Source: Alloprevotella sp. oral taxon 473 str. F0040 (lineage in GTDB: Bacteria; Bacteroidota; Bacteroidia; Bacteroidales; Bacteroidaceae). Taken from it: 34,848 bases of DNA. Below, in pieces: positions 1,594 to 6,839 of this stretch (positions within the stretch are counted from its first letter, which is position 1; each line of letters starts with the position of its first letter). Under the pieces are notes generated by a model. It was not told the origin of the DNA and ran no database searches. It worked only from the letters and a program-made list of their open reading frames with translations. Made by a program: the position numbers and the translations under genes. The stretch spans positions 325,751-360,598 of the forward strand of contig NZ_KB290716.1 in assembly GCF_000318095.2 (NCBI RefSeq), read 5' to 3'.

Positions 1594-2124
1594 CTAAACC
1601 TCTGATAACACCTTTTCCGGACTTAGCGTTACAATCGTCTTTTTATCTTGAACAATATCTACTTGCCCGTTATATACTATATCAGACTCTTCATATTTCA
1701 TATTTGGTTTGGCATAGTACACTTTCAGTCGATAATTGCCAGATGTCAATTTGCTCATCTTAAAATTGACATCGTATTTACAAATACAATCAGCAAGTGC
1801 TTCAAGGACATTATGGTACACGATAAGGGTTATCTGATTATCTTGATTAGCAATATTCACATAAATCTTTCTTACGGAACAGTTGGCTTTCAAATCTTCC
1901 AGTAGACACTGGGCTATACCGTCTTTGTCCAACTCTATACTTAATTTTGCTGGAATAGCATTGTTTTCTGCATAGAAGTCAGGACGTGTATCTGTCGGAG
2001 AGATGCTTAACTTACAATTAGAATTTGCAACATCATAAATTCTTAATGGCTCAAGAGCTACCTTCTCTGAGGAACATGCAGATAATCCACAGAAAAGGAT
2101 TAGGCTGTAAAATACTTTTTTCAT
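1594..2124 (-). CDS. Small cysteine-rich lipoprotein, last gene of the sigma/radical SAM island
   Basis: This 176-residue protein of unknown function has a signal peptide ending in the lipobox LSAC (Cys17), so it should be lipid-anchored in the envelope. The mature part has five further cysteines (about 37, 73, 82, 113 and 115), including a CIC pair followed by YDVNFKMSKL. That stretch, and the YRLKVYYA and QVDIVQDKKTIVTL strands, suggest a small beta-sandwich domain. It lies 129 bases after the preceding lipoprotein gene in the same direction, so it could be the distal gene of the operon or have its own promoter. As a secreted protein with extra cysteines beside a radical SAM maturase, it is a possible client of that enzyme, but this is inference. 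The start is an ATG followed by a Lys-Lys signal sequence. Confidence 0.7.
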   Translation of the reverse strand: MKKVFYSLILFCGLSACSSEKVALEPLRIYDVANSNCKLSISPTDTRPDFYAENNAIPAKLSIELDKDGIAQCLLEDLKANCSVRKIYVNIANQDNQITLIVYHNVLEALADCICKYDVNFKMSKLTSGNYRLKVYYAKPNMKYEESDIVYNGQVDIVQDKKTIVTLSPEKVLSEV

Positions 2125-2253
2125 AATTACAAGGATTTTATATGTTGATATTTATATAAACGTAATTACAAGTTATTTCTTGCTTATATTATTACGTATT
2201 TCTGTTATTGCTGAAATCCGCAATAAAGACACACATTTTATGGATAGTGTTTA

Positions 2254-2781
2254 CTATTCAATCAACTTCCCGTGTTTTTTGAGTATTGAGAGAAACTCTT
2301 CCCATTCTGCCGCTCTTTTTTCTTTTGCTTTTTGAATGGCCTTGTTCTCTTTAACATATTGACTATTGTCCTCAATATTGCGTGGGTAACAGTCACTCAG
2401 ATAAAACTTGCCAGATTCTGAAACTAATGATAAGTCTGTGAAGATTTGACTATTGAAAGATGCCACAAACGTTGAAATATGGAGTAGAACCTTACCATAC
2501 GAATGTATTTCTATGTTACGATAAATGGGAAAGAGCAGACTTGTCGGCTCAAAATCTTGAAAAATAATCTCACGGGTCTGCGCGTTGAAAGACTTGATGT
2601 TGTCAAGTGTAAAGAGATAGGGGCTTGAAGCGGCTCTTGTCATTCGGGCTGTCCCTATAGCAAACAATTCCGTTTTCGATGCTTGCACTGTGGGAGTTGA
2701 AGCAGACTCATCTTCATTGCTGCAACCAATAAACAGCAACGAGAAGATGAACGCCTGTAATACACAAAAGTACCTTTTCAT
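2254..2781 (-). CDS. Small lipoprotein of the sigma/radical SAM island
   Basis: This 175-residue protein of unknown function has a signal peptide with the lipobox LFIGC (Cys20) and an acidic Ser/Asp sequence after it, typical of surface-directed Bacteroidetes lipoproteins. The middle, with FTLDNIKSFNAQTREIIF, resembles a motif common in small secreted Bacteroides proteins. The C-terminus is a charged helix (ENKAIQKAKEKRAAEWEEF) that may form a coiled coil. It begins 23 bases after the Gfo/Idh/MocA gene on the same strand, so the two are probably co-transcribed. Its leader resembles that of the next lipoprotein gene: both have AAATCC shortly before an AATTATG-type start. The function cannot be told from the sequence. 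Confidence 0.7.
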   Translation of the reverse strand: MKRYFCVLQAFIFSLLFIGCSNEDESASTPTVQASKTELFAIGTARMTRAASSPYLFTLDNIKSFNAQTREIIFQDFEPTSLLFPIYRNIEIHSYGKVLLHISTFVASFNSQIFTDLSLVSESGKFYLSDCYPRNIEDNSQYVKENKAIQKAKEKRAAEWEEFLSILKKHGKLIE

Positions 2782-2804
2782 AATTTATTGGATTTAATTA
2801 GTTA

Positions 2805-3884
2805 TTATAATATGTGGTCGTCAATTATGTTCATATACTTCTTTATTTCTGCCATTAAGGAATAAACATGCTTGACACTTTCCAAGCAAAAGGCATGATT
2901 ATCCTCGCATCTGTTTTCAACCATATCGGCAAACGCTTGAATTTCCGAGAAGAACCCTTGTGACACAATTTGGTTATTCCCAACCGTTGGTACAAAACCA
3001 TTCCTTCCGTATAGGCTGACAACGGTTGCATTATTTTGGAAGACCTTTTCCAAAGGGATTCCCCATATAGCAGAGTGTCTTGGGGAAAAATCGAGTCTTT
3101 CCATTCTGTCCAATACATATTGTCCTTTGTCCGTACTAATACTTAATTGTTCCTGTGCATCCTGCCAAGAGTAATCTGTTGATAGTTCCAGCATCCCCGT
3201 TATACCTTGATGTTCCAACATAAGGAATAAGGTCTGGGTACCATCCTTACTGCGTATTTCCTCTGCCGCCTTTACCCTTGCTTTACCAAAGAGAAACGTA
3301 ACATAGTCAAGAGGATGGATGAACAGGTCGAGCAATGCATCACCTTCAGGGTATAACCCTGTCAAATAGCGATAATGGTAATGCCGTTTCCCTTCACCTT
3401 TCAATCTCTTTTGTAGGATTTGAGTAGCAGGGGCAAAACGTCTTTGTAGTCCGACAACAATATGTTGCGAGCCATATAACTTGACCATATCAGTCAAATC
3501 TTTTAGTTCTTTTTCGTTCTCACACGGCGGTTTCTCTATGAAAAGGGATTTTCCAGACTTTATAACCTCGCGCGCAATCGTGAAGTGAGAGTGGGGATTG
3601 GTAGCGACAAAAACGCCCTTTACGCTTTCGTCGTCCAACACTTCCTGCAAACAGGTTGTGCCTTTCACGCCCTTGTATTTTTGAGGTATCAAAGCTGCTT
3701 TTCGCTCGGAGGTGCAACAGATGTACTTCAAGGGCAGTTGCAGGTATTGCATAACTGGTAGCAGGTTGCCGACACAATGATTTCCAATGCCCACAAGCGC
3801 ATATTGCTGATTGTAGATCTTTTCCAAACCTCTGATGCTGCGGAAACGCTTGTATCTGTTAATGATTTTCCCAATATACTCCAT
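2805..3884 (-). CDS. Gfo/Idh/MocA-family NAD(P)-dependent oxidoreductase
   Basis: This 359-residue protein has the two-domain plan of the Gfo/Idh/MocA dehydrogenases, which usually oxidise or reduce a hydroxyl or keto group of a sugar or cyclitol. The nucleotide-binding motif is VGIGNHCVG (residues 31-39), after an unusual N-terminal extension of about 27 residues rich in Lys, Arg and Tyr. The family signature EKP is at 117-119 and a likely catalytic Asp/His pair at about 186 and 190 (DLFIHPLD). The gene starts 16 bases after the radical SAM gene and is followed 23 bases later by a lipoprotein gene, so all are probably one mRNA. Pairing with a radical SAM/SPASM enzyme suggests stepwise oxidation of one substrate, but no substrate can be named. 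The family call is firm and the reaction unknown. Confidence 0.85.
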   Translation of the reverse strand: MEYIGKIINRYKRFRSIRGLEKIYNQQYALVGIGNHCVGNLLPVMQYLQLPLKYICCTSERKAALIPQKYKGVKGTTCLQEVLDDESVKGVFVATNPHSHFTIAREVIKSGKSLFIEKPPCENEKELKDLTDMVKLYGSQHIVVGLQRRFAPATQILQKRLKGEGKRHYHYRYLTGLYPEGDALLDLFIHPLDYVTFLFGKARVKAAEEIRSKDGTQTLFLMLEHQGITGMLELSTDYSWQDAQEQLSISTDKGQYVLDRMERLDFSPRHSAIWGIPLEKVFQNNATVVSLYGRNGFVPTVGNNQIVSQGFFSEIQAFADMVENRCEDNHAFCLESVKHVYSLMAEIKKYMNIIDDHIL

Positions 3885-4971: not shown

Positions 4972-4994
4972 TCTGTTTCTTTGTCGGTTAATTA

Positions 4995-5037
4995 TTCCTT
5001 ATATTATCAAGGAGTACTAACCGATGAAAAGACTGCA
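4995..5037 (-). promoter_or_regulatory. Two-part conserved element before the radical SAM gene (copy 2)
   Basis: Read on the minus strand: TGCAGTCTTTTC (5037-5026), ten non-conserved bases (5025-5016), then a 21-base block (5015-4995) containing ACTCCTT, GATAAT and AAGGA. The 12-mer is identical to, and the 21-mer matches at 18 of 21 positions, the copy at 6797-6839, with the same spacing. The A/T core GATAAT begins 17 bases after the 12-mer, as in a -35/-10 promoter. It lies between ACTCCTT and AAGGA, which can pair (5 bp). It ends 23 bases before the radical SAM start codon. Confidence 0.75.
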
Positions 5038-5070
5038 AGCCCAGCATAACTTTTTAGAAGAAAGGTATAC

Positions 5071-6258
5071 TTACCATGTGAGTCGCAGCCCGAAGGGAAC
5101 AGTGATAAAGAATGGATGCTCGGTGCGATAGGTCTCTATTCCGCTGCCATTCCCAAAGTAATAGAACATGTTGGGTTCAAAGTACAGACTGAATGGCTTG
5201 AATATTTTGTACTGCACACCGATACCCAAGTTCACAGACAACTGATAACGTGGCTTGATGTCGCCTCTCAGCGTGAACGTCGAGTCGGACGTAACGACAT
5301 ACTTTTTATCAAACGAACTGTGGACAGGCATTTCAAATGTCACACCTCCCGTCGTATATGCGTTAAAGCGTCCCTTGCCCCATATACGATAGGTCAAGCG
5401 CAGTGGCATGCCAACATAATCTATCTTTTGTATTTTTATCAACTTCGCCTTGTGGTATTCACTTGTAAATTCAGACTTCAACCTCGTGTAGGTCAATCCC
5501 GTGCCGAAAATCCAATTCGGACTCAGCTGCTTGTTGAGGGATATTCCCAAGGTCTTCGGTCGATAGTGGTGCGCTTTCTCGTCCAACATGGCGTTTCCAT
5601 CCGTTGCATTGTTTTGAGCTATCCATTCCATTTTTGCCCTCTCCACGGAATCCATCAATGCCTTGTTTCTCGTTAAATAGTTGCTATAATCTTCCCATGT
5701 GTACAACTTCGCCATTGCGCCACCATTGGCATAATCCACTACGGACAGATAGCCCAAATTGGGCAATGTGGCATTGGAAGCGGCATTGGAAGAATATCCC
5801 AAGTTGAAAGTCCAGGGATATTTTTTCTTCCATGAAGTGGATGGATACCCGTGCGTGTTGAGAGCAACGAGTTTATCTGAAGATATTGATGGCAAACGGA
5901 ACAGAGAATCTATTACATTACTTTCCACCGCCAAGTGCTTTTGCAAGGAGTCTGTGCTGAGTGCCATTACATGCTGCTCGACATCCTTATTTTCTGTTCT
6001 TATTATATTTGTAGTATCGATCTTTGCGTACTGTTCATCTGTTCGCTCTTGCGCAAAATAGTTACTGATTTTTTTCTTGAGAGAGTCTGTTGTCTTTGTA
6101 TTGTTCAGTATGTTGGTGTTATTTTCTGACGTTCCTGACTCTCTCGTATCCTCCTTGCGAGATTTCACGAAAGCGAAACTGCTTCCAGACTTCTTTTCAT
6201 ATTGATTCTTTGTAATGAAGTAGATATATAGAGGTATGAAAACTGGAAGCAACAGCAC
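5071..6258 (-). CDS. Inner-membrane-anchored outer membrane beta-barrel protein paired with ECF sigma factor
   Basis: This 395-residue protein starts with a hydrophobic segment (about residues 1-16, ending ITKNQYEKK), then a long polar Ser/Asn/Asp-rich linker of about 110 residues. The C-terminal half consists of alternating strands typical of a porin-like barrel (LGISLNKQLSPNWIFGTGLTY, IDYVGMPLRLTYR, FGLRLTW at the end). Bacteroidetes ECF sigma genes are often followed by such hybrid proteins, in which a cytosolic anti-sigma region, one membrane helix and a barrel-like domain are joined. Here the cytosolic part is missing and the protein opens directly with the helix. The only plausible start is GTG at 6258, one codon after the sigma factor's TGA and in the same frame, so translation is probably coupled. 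The final Trp residue fits outer membrane barrels. The role is probably envelope sensing or anti-sigma activity, by inference. Confidence 0.7.
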   Translation of the reverse strand: MLLLPVFIPLYIYFITKNQYEKKSGSSFAFVKSRKEDTRESGTSENNTNILNNTKTTDSLKKKISNYFAQERTDEQYAKIDTTNIIRTENKDVEQHVMALSTDSLQKHLAVESNVIDSLFRLPSISSDKLVALNTHGYPSTSWKKKYPWTFNLGYSSNAASNATLPNLGYLSVVDYANGGAMAKLYTWEDYSNYLTRNKALMDSVERAKMEWIAQNNATDGNAMLDEKAHHYRPKTLGISLNKQLSPNWIFGTGLTYTRLKSEFTSEYHKAKLIKIQKIDYVGMPLRLTYRIWGKGRFNAYTTGGVTFEMPVHSSFDKKYVVTSDSTFTLRGDIKPRYQLSVNLGIGVQYKIFKPFSLYFEPNMFYYFGNGSGIETYRTEHPFFITVPFGLRLTW

Positions 6259-6261
6259 TTC

Positions 6262-6777
6262 TCAATAGTCGATCAGCATGTTGCGAAGTATTTTCTTTGC
6301 CCTAAACAACTGCGAGGAAGAACTGTGTGGGGCAATACCAAGCAACTTTCCGATTTCTTTGTGCGACAAACCATCCAAAACCGATAGTTTGAACACTTCC
6401 CTATCACCTTTGGGCAGGTTTTCGATGGCAGACAAAAGCACCTCCAATTCTATACTTTTGTCTAGGTCGCTTGATTCATCAACTGCAAAATCTATGTCCA
6501 ACTGAGATAATGGGAAGTTACGCTTATCTGTACTTTTCAAATACTTTAAGGAAAGGTTTCTCACGATGGTTATCATCCAACCTTCCAATTGAGAATTGTC
6601 CTTCAAGTCTTTCAGTGACATAAAGATAATGATAAAAGCATCGTGCAAAATGTCCTCTGCCACACTTTCATCCTTGATATAGTGTCGGCATACGCCCTCC
6701 AGTTTATGGGCATACACTGTGTAAAGTTCTCCAAGAGCGTCCTTATCTCCTTGCTTGCAAGCGTCAATCTGTATCAT
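6262..6777 (-). CDS. ECF-type RNA polymerase sigma factor
   Basis: This 171-residue protein has the standard two-domain plan of extracytoplasmic-function sigma factors. Sigma-2 spans about residues 10-82, with YIKDESVAEDILHDAFI (region 2.2-like) and LEGWMITIVRNLSLKYLKS (regions 2.3/2.4). Sigma-4 spans about 113-168, with IENLPKGDREVFKL, then a helix-turn-helix LSHKEIGKLLGIAPHSSSSQ ending in LFRAKKILRNML. The ATG at 6777 follows a two-part element (6797-6839) that is repeated before the radical SAM gene, suggesting autoregulation and control of the island. Its stop TGA (6264-6262) is in frame with the following membrane/barrel gene. The family call is certain and the regulon inferred. Confidence 0.93.
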   Translation of the reverse strand: MIQIDACKQGDKDALGELYTVYAHKLEGVCRHYIKDESVAEDILHDAFIIIFMSLKDLKDNSQLEGWMITIVRNLSLKYLKSTDKRNFPLSQLDIDFAVDESSDLDKSIELEVLLSAIENLPKGDREVFKLSVLDGLSHKEIGKLLGIAPHSSSSQLFRAKKILRNMLIDY

Positions 6778-6796
6778 TTATTTTATGGCAACAAAA

Positions 6797-6839
6797 CTCC
6801 TTTTATTATAAAGGAGTGGATGAATACGAAAAGACTGCA
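6797..6839 (-). promoter_or_regulatory. Two-part conserved element before the ECF sigma gene (copy 1)
   Basis: Read on the minus strand: TGCAGTCTTTTC (6839-6828), ten variable bases (6827-6818), then a 21-base block (6817-6797) with ACTCCTT, a TATAAT core and AAAGGAG. The arms CTCCTT and AAGGAG are perfectly complementary (6 bp). The core begins 17 bases after the 12-mer. The block ends 19 bases before the sigma factor ATG. The matching copy is at 4995-5037. I infer a promoter recognised by the sigma factor itself, with the inverted repeat as a possible operator or leader hairpin. Confidence 0.75.

What the first reader, a model, noticed from the sequence alone, without database searches (positions are those of the whole stretch)
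4995..6839. Identical two-part control element before the sigma factor gene and the radical SAM gene
Seen: at 6797-6839 and 4995-5037 (minus strand) the same 12-mer TGCAGTCTTTTC is followed after exactly 10 unconserved bases by a 21-base block conserved at 18 of 21 positions, ending 19 and 23 bases before the start codons. The block holds ACTCCTT and AAGGA(G) arms around a TATAAT/GATAAT core that sits 17 bases after the 12-mer. Conserved ends with a variable spacer of fixed length is the pattern of a promoter. Inference: this is the promoter of the ECF sigma factor itself, giving autoregulation plus control of the radical SAM operon, and the arms may be an operator or leader hairpin.
Basis: partly seen in the sequence, partly recalled or inferred. 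Interest (0 to 1): 0.82.

Follow-up and report, generated by a model that had tools for sequence, protein, structure and literature searches.

The report
Self-regulating promoter nested in RNA hairpin
The repeated DNA block is most likely the on-switch by which an envelope-sensing bacterial sigma factor turns on its own gene and a neighbouring enzyme gene, and before the enzyme gene it sits inside a hairpin that may stop the enzyme being made by accident.

Summary
In detail: both blocks are at the stated coordinates, and 12-mer-N10-ACTCCTT has just two exact copies in the 2.55 Mb genome. Relatives show a two-box promoter: TGCAGTCTTT, about 15 bases, then GGACTATATAA, GTATCTATAT or ACTCCTTTATAAT. 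TGCAGTCTTT lies upstream of 60 of 80 related sigma genes (0.014 expected). The element recurs before the radical SAM gene and often a small third gene; no convincing copy was found elsewhere. Recognition by this sigma factor is inferred. Two things go further. (1) The ACTCCTT/AAGGA arms are not generally conserved, but radical SAM copies lie inside a larger hairpin, its arms flanking box 2 and ending about 4 nt before ATG. It covaries (9 of 14 pairs changed on both sides; 0 of 500 shuffles). Read-through mRNA would fold shut; mRNA from the inner promoter would lack the 5' arm, as in phage T4 lysozyme. (2) In relatives the sigma factor is fused in one chain to a membrane helix, tether and outer-membrane barrel, a Dma-like sensor with sigma in place of the anti-sigma domain; in this window an in-frame TGA splits it. 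New variant of a known kind; no expression data.

The parts
6830..6839 (-). first promoter box (TGCAGTCTTT) before the sigma gene
   Evidence: TGCAGTCTTT within 170 nt upstream of 60 of 80 relatives' sigma genes, GCAGT[CAT] of 69 of 80
6797..6817 (-). second promoter box (ACTCCTTTATAAT...) with local ACTCCTT/AAGGAG arms; the arms are kept in a minority of relatives only
   Evidence: leader fold z -2.13; flagged terminator-like
6262..6777 (-). ECF sigma factor (171 aa), ending at an in-frame TGA (6264-6262)
   Evidence: relatives continue through this point as one protein
5071..6258 (-). membrane helix, periplasmic tether and outer-membrane beta-barrel; same frame as the sigma gene and fused to it in relatives
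   Evidence: (barrel match below Pfam cut-off for this copy)
5028..5037 (-). first promoter box before the radical SAM gene
4995..5015 (-). second promoter box before the radical SAM gene, with an inner stem
5016..5032 (-). 5' outer arm of the leader hairpin (includes TCGGTTAGT), mostly in the spacer between the two boxes
   Evidence: -17.5 kcal/mol, z -3.88, 1 of 200 shuffles as stable; arm covariation in relatives
4978..4992 (-). 3' outer arm of the leader hairpin (includes TTAACCGA), just upstream of the start codon
3901..4971 (-). radical SAM/SPASM protein (356 aa), target gene
2805..3884 (-). Gfo/Idh/MocA-type oxidoreductase, next gene of the operon
   Evidence: follows the radical SAM gene in many relatives
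2254..2781 (-). small protein P0005 (lipoprotein-like N-terminus, judged by eye); homologues in other genomes sit between the barrel and radical SAM genes with their own copy of the element
1594..2124 (-). small protein P0006 (lipoprotein-like N-terminus, judged by eye)

Best explanation
The repeated block is a promoter read by the ECF sigma factor that it precedes: box 1 TGCAGTCTTT as the -35 region, about 15 bases, and box 2 as the -10 region. It gives autoregulation of the sigma-sensor gene and direct control of the radical SAM gene (elsewhere also of a small third gene or of a methyltransferase gene). Before the radical SAM gene the promoter lies inside a long hairpin: the 5' arm is between the two boxes and the 3' arm ends about 4 nt before ATG. 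An mRNA reading through from upstream carries both arms and folds over the translation start; an mRNA started at the inner promoter lacks the 5' arm and is open. So basal transcription that keeps the sensor in place would not make the enzyme, and activation of the sigma factor would. In relatives the sigma factor is the N-terminal domain of one polypeptide with a membrane helix, a tether and an outer-membrane barrel, and is presumably freed by proteolysis on an envelope signal. Shown by sequence: element, spacing, confinement in the searches made, hairpin covariation, fusion. Inferred: recognition by this sigma factor, transcript starts, translation block, proteolytic release.
For: TGCAGTCTTT within 170 nt upstream of 60 of 80 sigma-fusion genes (0.014 expected in shuffled upstreams) and GCAGT[CAT] of 69 of 80 (6.98 expected); gapless alignment of 75 elements with fixed spacing. 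GCAGTCWTTN{9,13}GACTWTAWAA: 18 matches in 11 of 201 genomes, 0 for the reversed control, all 18 before the sigma, small third or radical SAM gene of this operon. Profile search of 10 genomes: all 22 hits with E < 0.1 are operon elements. Hairpin: spacer/downstream duplex median z -4.07 in 52 radical SAM leaders against 0.01 in 80 sigma and -0.04 in 34 small-gene leaders; own-arm pairing -11.24 against -5.86 permuted, 0 of 5000, over 21 arm clusters; at least 6 such pairs in 49 of 52, median 14, ending a median 4 nt before ATG; 9 of 14 pairs changed on both sides in 19 aligned leaders, 0 of 500 shuffles, slid structures far lower. Loop inserts in L019, L086 and L091 keep the outer arms. The same arrangement is described for T4 gene e (PMC3014915, passages). 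Fusion: of the listed matches in 301 family genomes, 68 near-full-length places, 66 without a stop.
Against: No transcript start or binding data. 11 of 80 sigma genes lack GCAGT[CAT] within 170 nt, 20 of 80 lack exact TGCAGTCTTT. A second pattern (GCAGTCTTT N10-14 GTATCT) in 34 genomes gave 9 matches against 5 reversed-control matches; 5 of the 9 are in sigma/barrel loci, 4 fall inside other ORFs. Two of four split sigma/barrel pairs read have no element in the stretch. The small third gene is also internal to the operon but its leaders show no excess pairing. At the lax criterion of 6 pairs, 17 of 34 small-gene and 20 of 80 sigma leaders also pass, with median 8 pairs, and sigma copies show a slight own-arm excess (9 of 5000 permutations). 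9 of 52 radical SAM leaders have duplex z above 0, mostly A/T-rich oral Prevotella. L019, L086 and L138 have strong hairpins without a close upstream ORF of 100 aa in the held stretch. Two of four element-less radical SAM leaders, from nearly identical paralogues, carry a perfect inverted repeat too.
Confidence: 0.64

Rival explanations
1. A plain autoregulated ECF promoter; the inverted arms at the radical SAM gene are a DNA operator for a dimeric regulator.
For: Same two boxes at sigma, small-gene and radical SAM starts. The arms flank box 2, where an operator could act.
Against: Arm sequences differ between lineages while staying complementary (21 arm clusters; 9 of 14 pairs changed on both sides within one clade) and stay complementary across large loop inserts. 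A fixed protein-binding site would keep its sequence and spacing.
Confidence: 0.12
2. The whole element is a structured 5' leader RNA (protein- or ligand-binding), with the real promoter further upstream.
For: Strong RNA-like covariation in radical SAM leaders; box 1 partly joins the stem in some (for example L013, L021, L130, L146).
Against: Sigma and small-gene copies keep both boxes and their spacing without excess pairing. No Rfam family reached its gathering score in 16 loci; the five matches with E up to 1 lie away from the leaders. Two boxes at fixed distance with an unconserved spacer are promoter-like.
Confidence: 0.12
3. The radical SAM hairpin is an intrinsic terminator or attenuator that stops read-through transcription rather than translation.
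For: 15 of the 49 hairpin leaders have at least five T in the eight bases after the stem.
Against: 34 of 49 do not. The 3' arm ends within 12 nt of ATG in all 49, which suits a block of translation start.
Confidence: 0.15
4. The element is a short leader peptide: [A/G/T]TG-CAG-TCT-TTT reads Met-Gln-Ser-Phe.
For: Box 1 reads as a start codon plus Gln-Ser-Phe in most copies, and in some relatives the frame runs on into the sigma gene.
Against: 17 of 166 copies lack a start codon there and 53 of 166 have a stop within 11 codons.
Confidence: 0.03

Closest known systems
[quoted passage not shown] the 2024 PNAS paper was not held), and a similar pair in Phocaeicola vulgatus (PMC9308784, passages seen)
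   Same: ECF sigma factor, one membrane helix, long tether and C-terminal beta-barrel, encoded together. Split sigma plus barrel pairs in G249 and G293 use the same two-box element.
   Different: Here the sigma factor itself is the N-terminal domain of the barrel protein, and the roughly 50-residue N-terminal domain of split barrel proteins is missing. The passages read describe no promoter motif.
IutY of Pseudomonas putida, a sigma/anti-sigma hybrid freed by regulated intramembrane proteolysis (PMC5411451, passages seen)
   Same: Cytosolic ECF sigma domain fused to one membrane helix and an extracytoplasmic part.
   Different: IutY ends in the periplasm and works with a separate outer-membrane receptor; here the barrel is part of the same chain.
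Phage T4 lysozyme gene e leader (PMC3014915, passages seen)
   Same: A late promoter lies in the region encoding the 5' strand of a hairpin that blocks translation from longer transcripts; short transcripts lack that strand.
   Different: Phage gene timing there, a bacterial sigma-controlled operon here; the translation block is not tested here.

Membership tests
autoregulated ECF promoter | sigma gene belongs to the ECF family | tested here: met
   Sigma70_r2, Sigma70_r4_2 and Sigma70_ECF above Pfam cut-off; TIGR02937 sigma70-ECF above cut-off
autoregulated ECF promoter | two conserved boxes at fixed distance upstream of the sigma gene and target genes | tested here: met
   11 of 80 sigma genes lack it
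autoregulated ECF promoter | transcription starts downstream of box 2 and depends on this sigma factor | not testable with these tools
   no expression data available
Das/Dma sigma/anti-sigma pair | separate anti-sigma protein with an N-terminal cytoplasmic anti-sigma domain | tested here: not met
   In 40 of 40 aligned relatives the most hydrophobic segment begins at residue 164-184, directly after sigma region 4; four split barrel proteins have 47-52 residues before theirs. In the window, sigma and barrel are separated by a stop, but the barrel ORF starts at the helix.
Das/Dma sigma/anti-sigma pair | transmembrane helix, tether and C-terminal beta-barrel | tested here: met
   OMP_b-brl_2 and sigma domains in 6 of 6 fused relatives; hydrophobic segment in 40 of 40. 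No structure model was obtained.
Das/Dma sigma/anti-sigma pair | sigma factor of ECF group 21 | not tested
   ECF-group models were not among the libraries used; best NCBIfam hit TIGR02985 is below its cut-off
T4 gene e type read-through silencing | promoter located between or overlapping the arms of a hairpin next to the start codon | tested here: met
   on the assumption that the two boxes are a promoter
T4 gene e type read-through silencing | lower translation from long than from short transcripts | not testable with these tools
   needs reporters or ribosome profiling

The most novel reading that the evidence does not exclude
A widespread Bacteroidales system in which the sigma factor is itself a dual membrane-spanning sensor (sigma, inner-membrane helix, tether and outer-membrane barrel in one chain, no anti-sigma domain) and fires a private promoter nested in a covarying hairpin, so that its radical SAM enzyme is translated only from sigma-initiated mRNA: an on/off gate made of promoter and RNA fold at one site.
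Probability: 0.45. Interest if true: 0.8.

Novelty: new variant of a known kind. Interest (0 to 1): 0.65.

Why it matters
It gives a defined promoter motif and a small, testable regulon for envelope-spanning sigma factors of Prevotella, Alloprevotella and Bacteroides relatives; the passages read on related systems describe no motif. It shows a sigma factor joined in one chain to an outer-membrane barrel, which makes the question of how an outer-membrane signal frees a cytoplasmic regulator directly testable. And it would extend to a bacterial operon a promoter-inside-hairpin arrangement that the literature read here describes for phage T4.

Tried and rejected
Local arms ACTCCTT/AAGGAG as a general hairpin or operator: not supported, 17 of 79 sigma copies with a local stem of 5 bp or more against about 5 expected. 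Leader peptide Met-Gln-Ser-Phe: rejected. Known RNA family: none at gathering score in 16 loci. Chance repeat: rejected. Regulon beyond the operon: nothing convincing, but the profile search scored only 150 candidates per genome and missed both known elements of G069, and the third hit in G000 (E 0.199) was not examined. Terminator in general: 15 of 49 only. A structure prediction of an intact relative (alignment A2, 40 sequences) never started because the machine was busy (17 tries). The 2013 EcfO paper and the 2024 Dma1 paper were not held. Ten paper searches listed no paper that by title or abstract describes a sigma factor fused to an outer-membrane barrel or this promoter motif; only open-licence papers are searched, and I looked into five papers by passages only.

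Rows dropped before counts: one search found 194 candidates (82 sigma, 68 radical SAM, 42 small-gene, 2 Gfo); one search kept 166 (80, 52, 34; totals rechecked) after dropping Gfo, GCAGTT-type matches (mostly inside the arms), distances above 140 and the small-gene rows of L102. A few second matches in one locus (L048, L081, L122, L148, L151) may remain in the sigma set. groups the rows into 41, 21 and 11 clusters. One search uses 19 of the 52 radical SAM leaders, one large clade, with a structure drawn by me from one row. The 80 loci are the best of 535 (capped list) and were picked with a fused query, so the fusion rate in them is biased. My counts for one search come from its listing, which is cut at weak matches.

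Full report
What was checked. In the whole genome (2,553,017 bases in 24 contigs) the combined pattern has two exact matches, both here, and none in the reversed control. Contig C3 of G015, a genome of the window's genus, has the same length (312,620) as Alloprevotella rava contig NZ_JACICA010000003.1, and both give the same alignment to the window, so the window is most likely an Alloprevotella.

Comparative evidence for a promoter. The radical SAM protein was searched in 201 genomes of the family (34 genomes with a match), and the sigma-barrel protein in a collection of named species genomes (best 80 of 535 relatives kept, capped list). Upstream of the 80 sigma genes, TGCAGTCTTT occurs within 170 nt in 60 and GCAGT[CAT] in 69, against 0.014 and 6.98 expected from shuffling. 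The 11 without it include several whose start lies close behind another coding sequence (seen by eye); one, L150, has a near match. Seventy-five copies align without a gap: TGCAGTCTTT, a poorly conserved spacer, then a second box of types GGACTATATAA, GTATCTATAT or ACTCCTTTATAAT. If GCAGTC is the -35 hexamer, a hexamer beginning two bases inside box 2 lies 17 bases away; the exact -10 hexamer cannot be fixed without transcript ends. A strict pattern for the GGACTATATAA type gave 18 matches in 11 of 201 genomes and none in the control; every match is before the sigma gene, the small third gene or the radical SAM gene of this operon. A looser pattern for the GTATCT type in 34 chosen genomes was less clean: 9 matches against 5 in the control, of which 5 of 9 are in sigma/barrel loci and 4 inside other ORFs. 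A sequence profile run over ten genomes gave 22 hits below E 0.1, all in the operon, though it missed both elements of one genome. The regulon therefore looks private to the operon, within the limits of these searches.

A wider family shares the promoter. In G249 and G293 the sigma factor (181 aa) and the barrel protein (412 aa in G249) are separate, as in Das/Dma, and the element stands before the sigma gene and again before a gene that I read as a class I methyltransferase (judged by eye from its sequence). Of four split pairs read, L194 has the element clearly, L197 has a variant (TGCAGTCTCATC), and L195 and L196 have none in the stretch.

The hairpin. Radical SAM copies have complementary arms around the second box. 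Pairing of the spacer with the downstream part has median z -4.07 in 52 radical SAM leaders, 0.01 in 80 sigma leaders and -0.04 in 34 small-gene leaders; p of 0.01 or less in 28 of 52, 1 of 80 and 0 of 34. Swapping arms among 21 arm clusters raises the mean duplex energy from -11.24 to -5.86 (0 of 5000 permutations as low); sigma copies show a slight excess (9 of 5000) and small-gene copies little (463 of 5000). Folding gives at least six such pairs in 49 of 52, median 14, ending a median of 4 nt before ATG; by the same lax count 20 of 80 sigma and 17 of 34 small-gene leaders pass, with median 8 pairs. Whole-leader folding z is -5.19 (median; 42 of 52 below -2) for radical SAM, -0.66 (15 of 80) for sigma and -0.45 (5 of 34) for small-gene leaders. 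In 19 aligned leaders of one clade, 9 of 14 pairs changed on both sides and 95.1% of cells pair; no shuffle of 500 reaches this, and slid structures fall to 21-44%. In the window the radical SAM leader folds at -17.5 kcal/mol, z -3.88. Large loop inserts keep the outer arms (L019, L086, L091). Forty-five of 52 radical SAM elements begin within 48 nt of the stop of an upstream ORF in the same direction, so read-through is expected. Nine of 52 leaders have duplex z above 0. Of four element-less radical SAM leaders used as controls, two (L012, L022) have no hairpin and two nearly identical ones (L037, L045) have a perfect inverted repeat.

Mechanism. The promoter would be nested in a hairpin. For T4 lysozyme the review says that longer transcripts form the inhibitory structure, reducing synthesis 100-fold, and that transcripts from late promoters lack its 5' portion and are well translated (PMC3014915, passages). 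The same reasoning fits here: the sensor must be made at some level before it can sense, and the hairpin would keep that transcription from producing the enzyme. The small third gene lacks the hairpin, so the enzyme seems to be the product that must stay off. Termination rather than translation block is possible in a minority (15 of 49 with a T-run).

The fused sensor. In nine relatives read first, sigma and barrel are one uninterrupted frame. In the 80 loci, 79 run on for 488-595 residues without a stop and one (L135) is cut by the contig end; these were picked with a fused query. A profile search of 301 family genomes (155 with a match) lists, by my count, 68 places spanning at least about 510 of 555 positions, of which 66 have no stop and two have one: the window and G152. 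The same listing shows split sigma (about 187 aa) and barrel (about 430 aa) ORFs in many genomes. Pfam finds sigma regions 2 and 4 and an outer-membrane barrel in 6 of 6 fused proteins, and the most hydrophobic segment starts at residue 164-184 in 40 of 40. Four split barrel proteins carry 47-52 residues before theirs, which fits the N-terminal anti-sigma domain described for Dma proteins (PMC13088901, passages); the fusions have the sigma factor there instead. In the window the sigma frame ends in TGA and the barrel frame continues in the same frame. If real, this separates sigma from its tether and may leave it permanently active; a sequencing error or stop read-through are alternatives.

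What is not shown. No transcript ends, binding or translation data, and no structure model (the service was busy, last try). The function of the radical SAM enzyme is unknown; the next gene is an oxidoreductase of the Gfo/Idh/MocA family, so modification of a sugar or surface molecule is a guess.

Verdict. Observation confirmed; promoter reading well supported by comparison but not by experiment; arms reading corrected; new variant of a known kind.

Noticed in passing
window 6262-6264: An in-frame TGA splits sigma factor and barrel that are one protein in relatives; of 68 listed near-full-length places one other (G152) has a stop.
   Followed up: partly
L037 (own genome, contig C17), 4234-6806: A second radical SAM plus Gfo/Idh pair lies in a segment 99.95% identical over 9.7 kb to G164, a genome of another genus, which suggests recent transfer. 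Its leader has a perfect inverted repeat but not the promoter element.
   Followed up: partly
window 1640-2900: The small genes downstream are 91% identical in DNA to Prevotella multiformis (L074), with protein P0005 about 99% identical, while the whole 4.2 kb match averages 81%: possible mosaic ancestry.
   Followed up: no
L207 (367-1200), L201, L206: In other genomes of the family the element precedes a methyltransferase-like gene after the barrel gene, so the sensor module is kept while the cargo changes.
   Followed up: partly
L019, L020, L086, L091, L139 (radical SAM leaders): Some radical SAM leaders carry long inserts in the hairpin loop that fold on their own while the outer arms remain (L020 and L139 judged by eye only).
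   Followed up: partly
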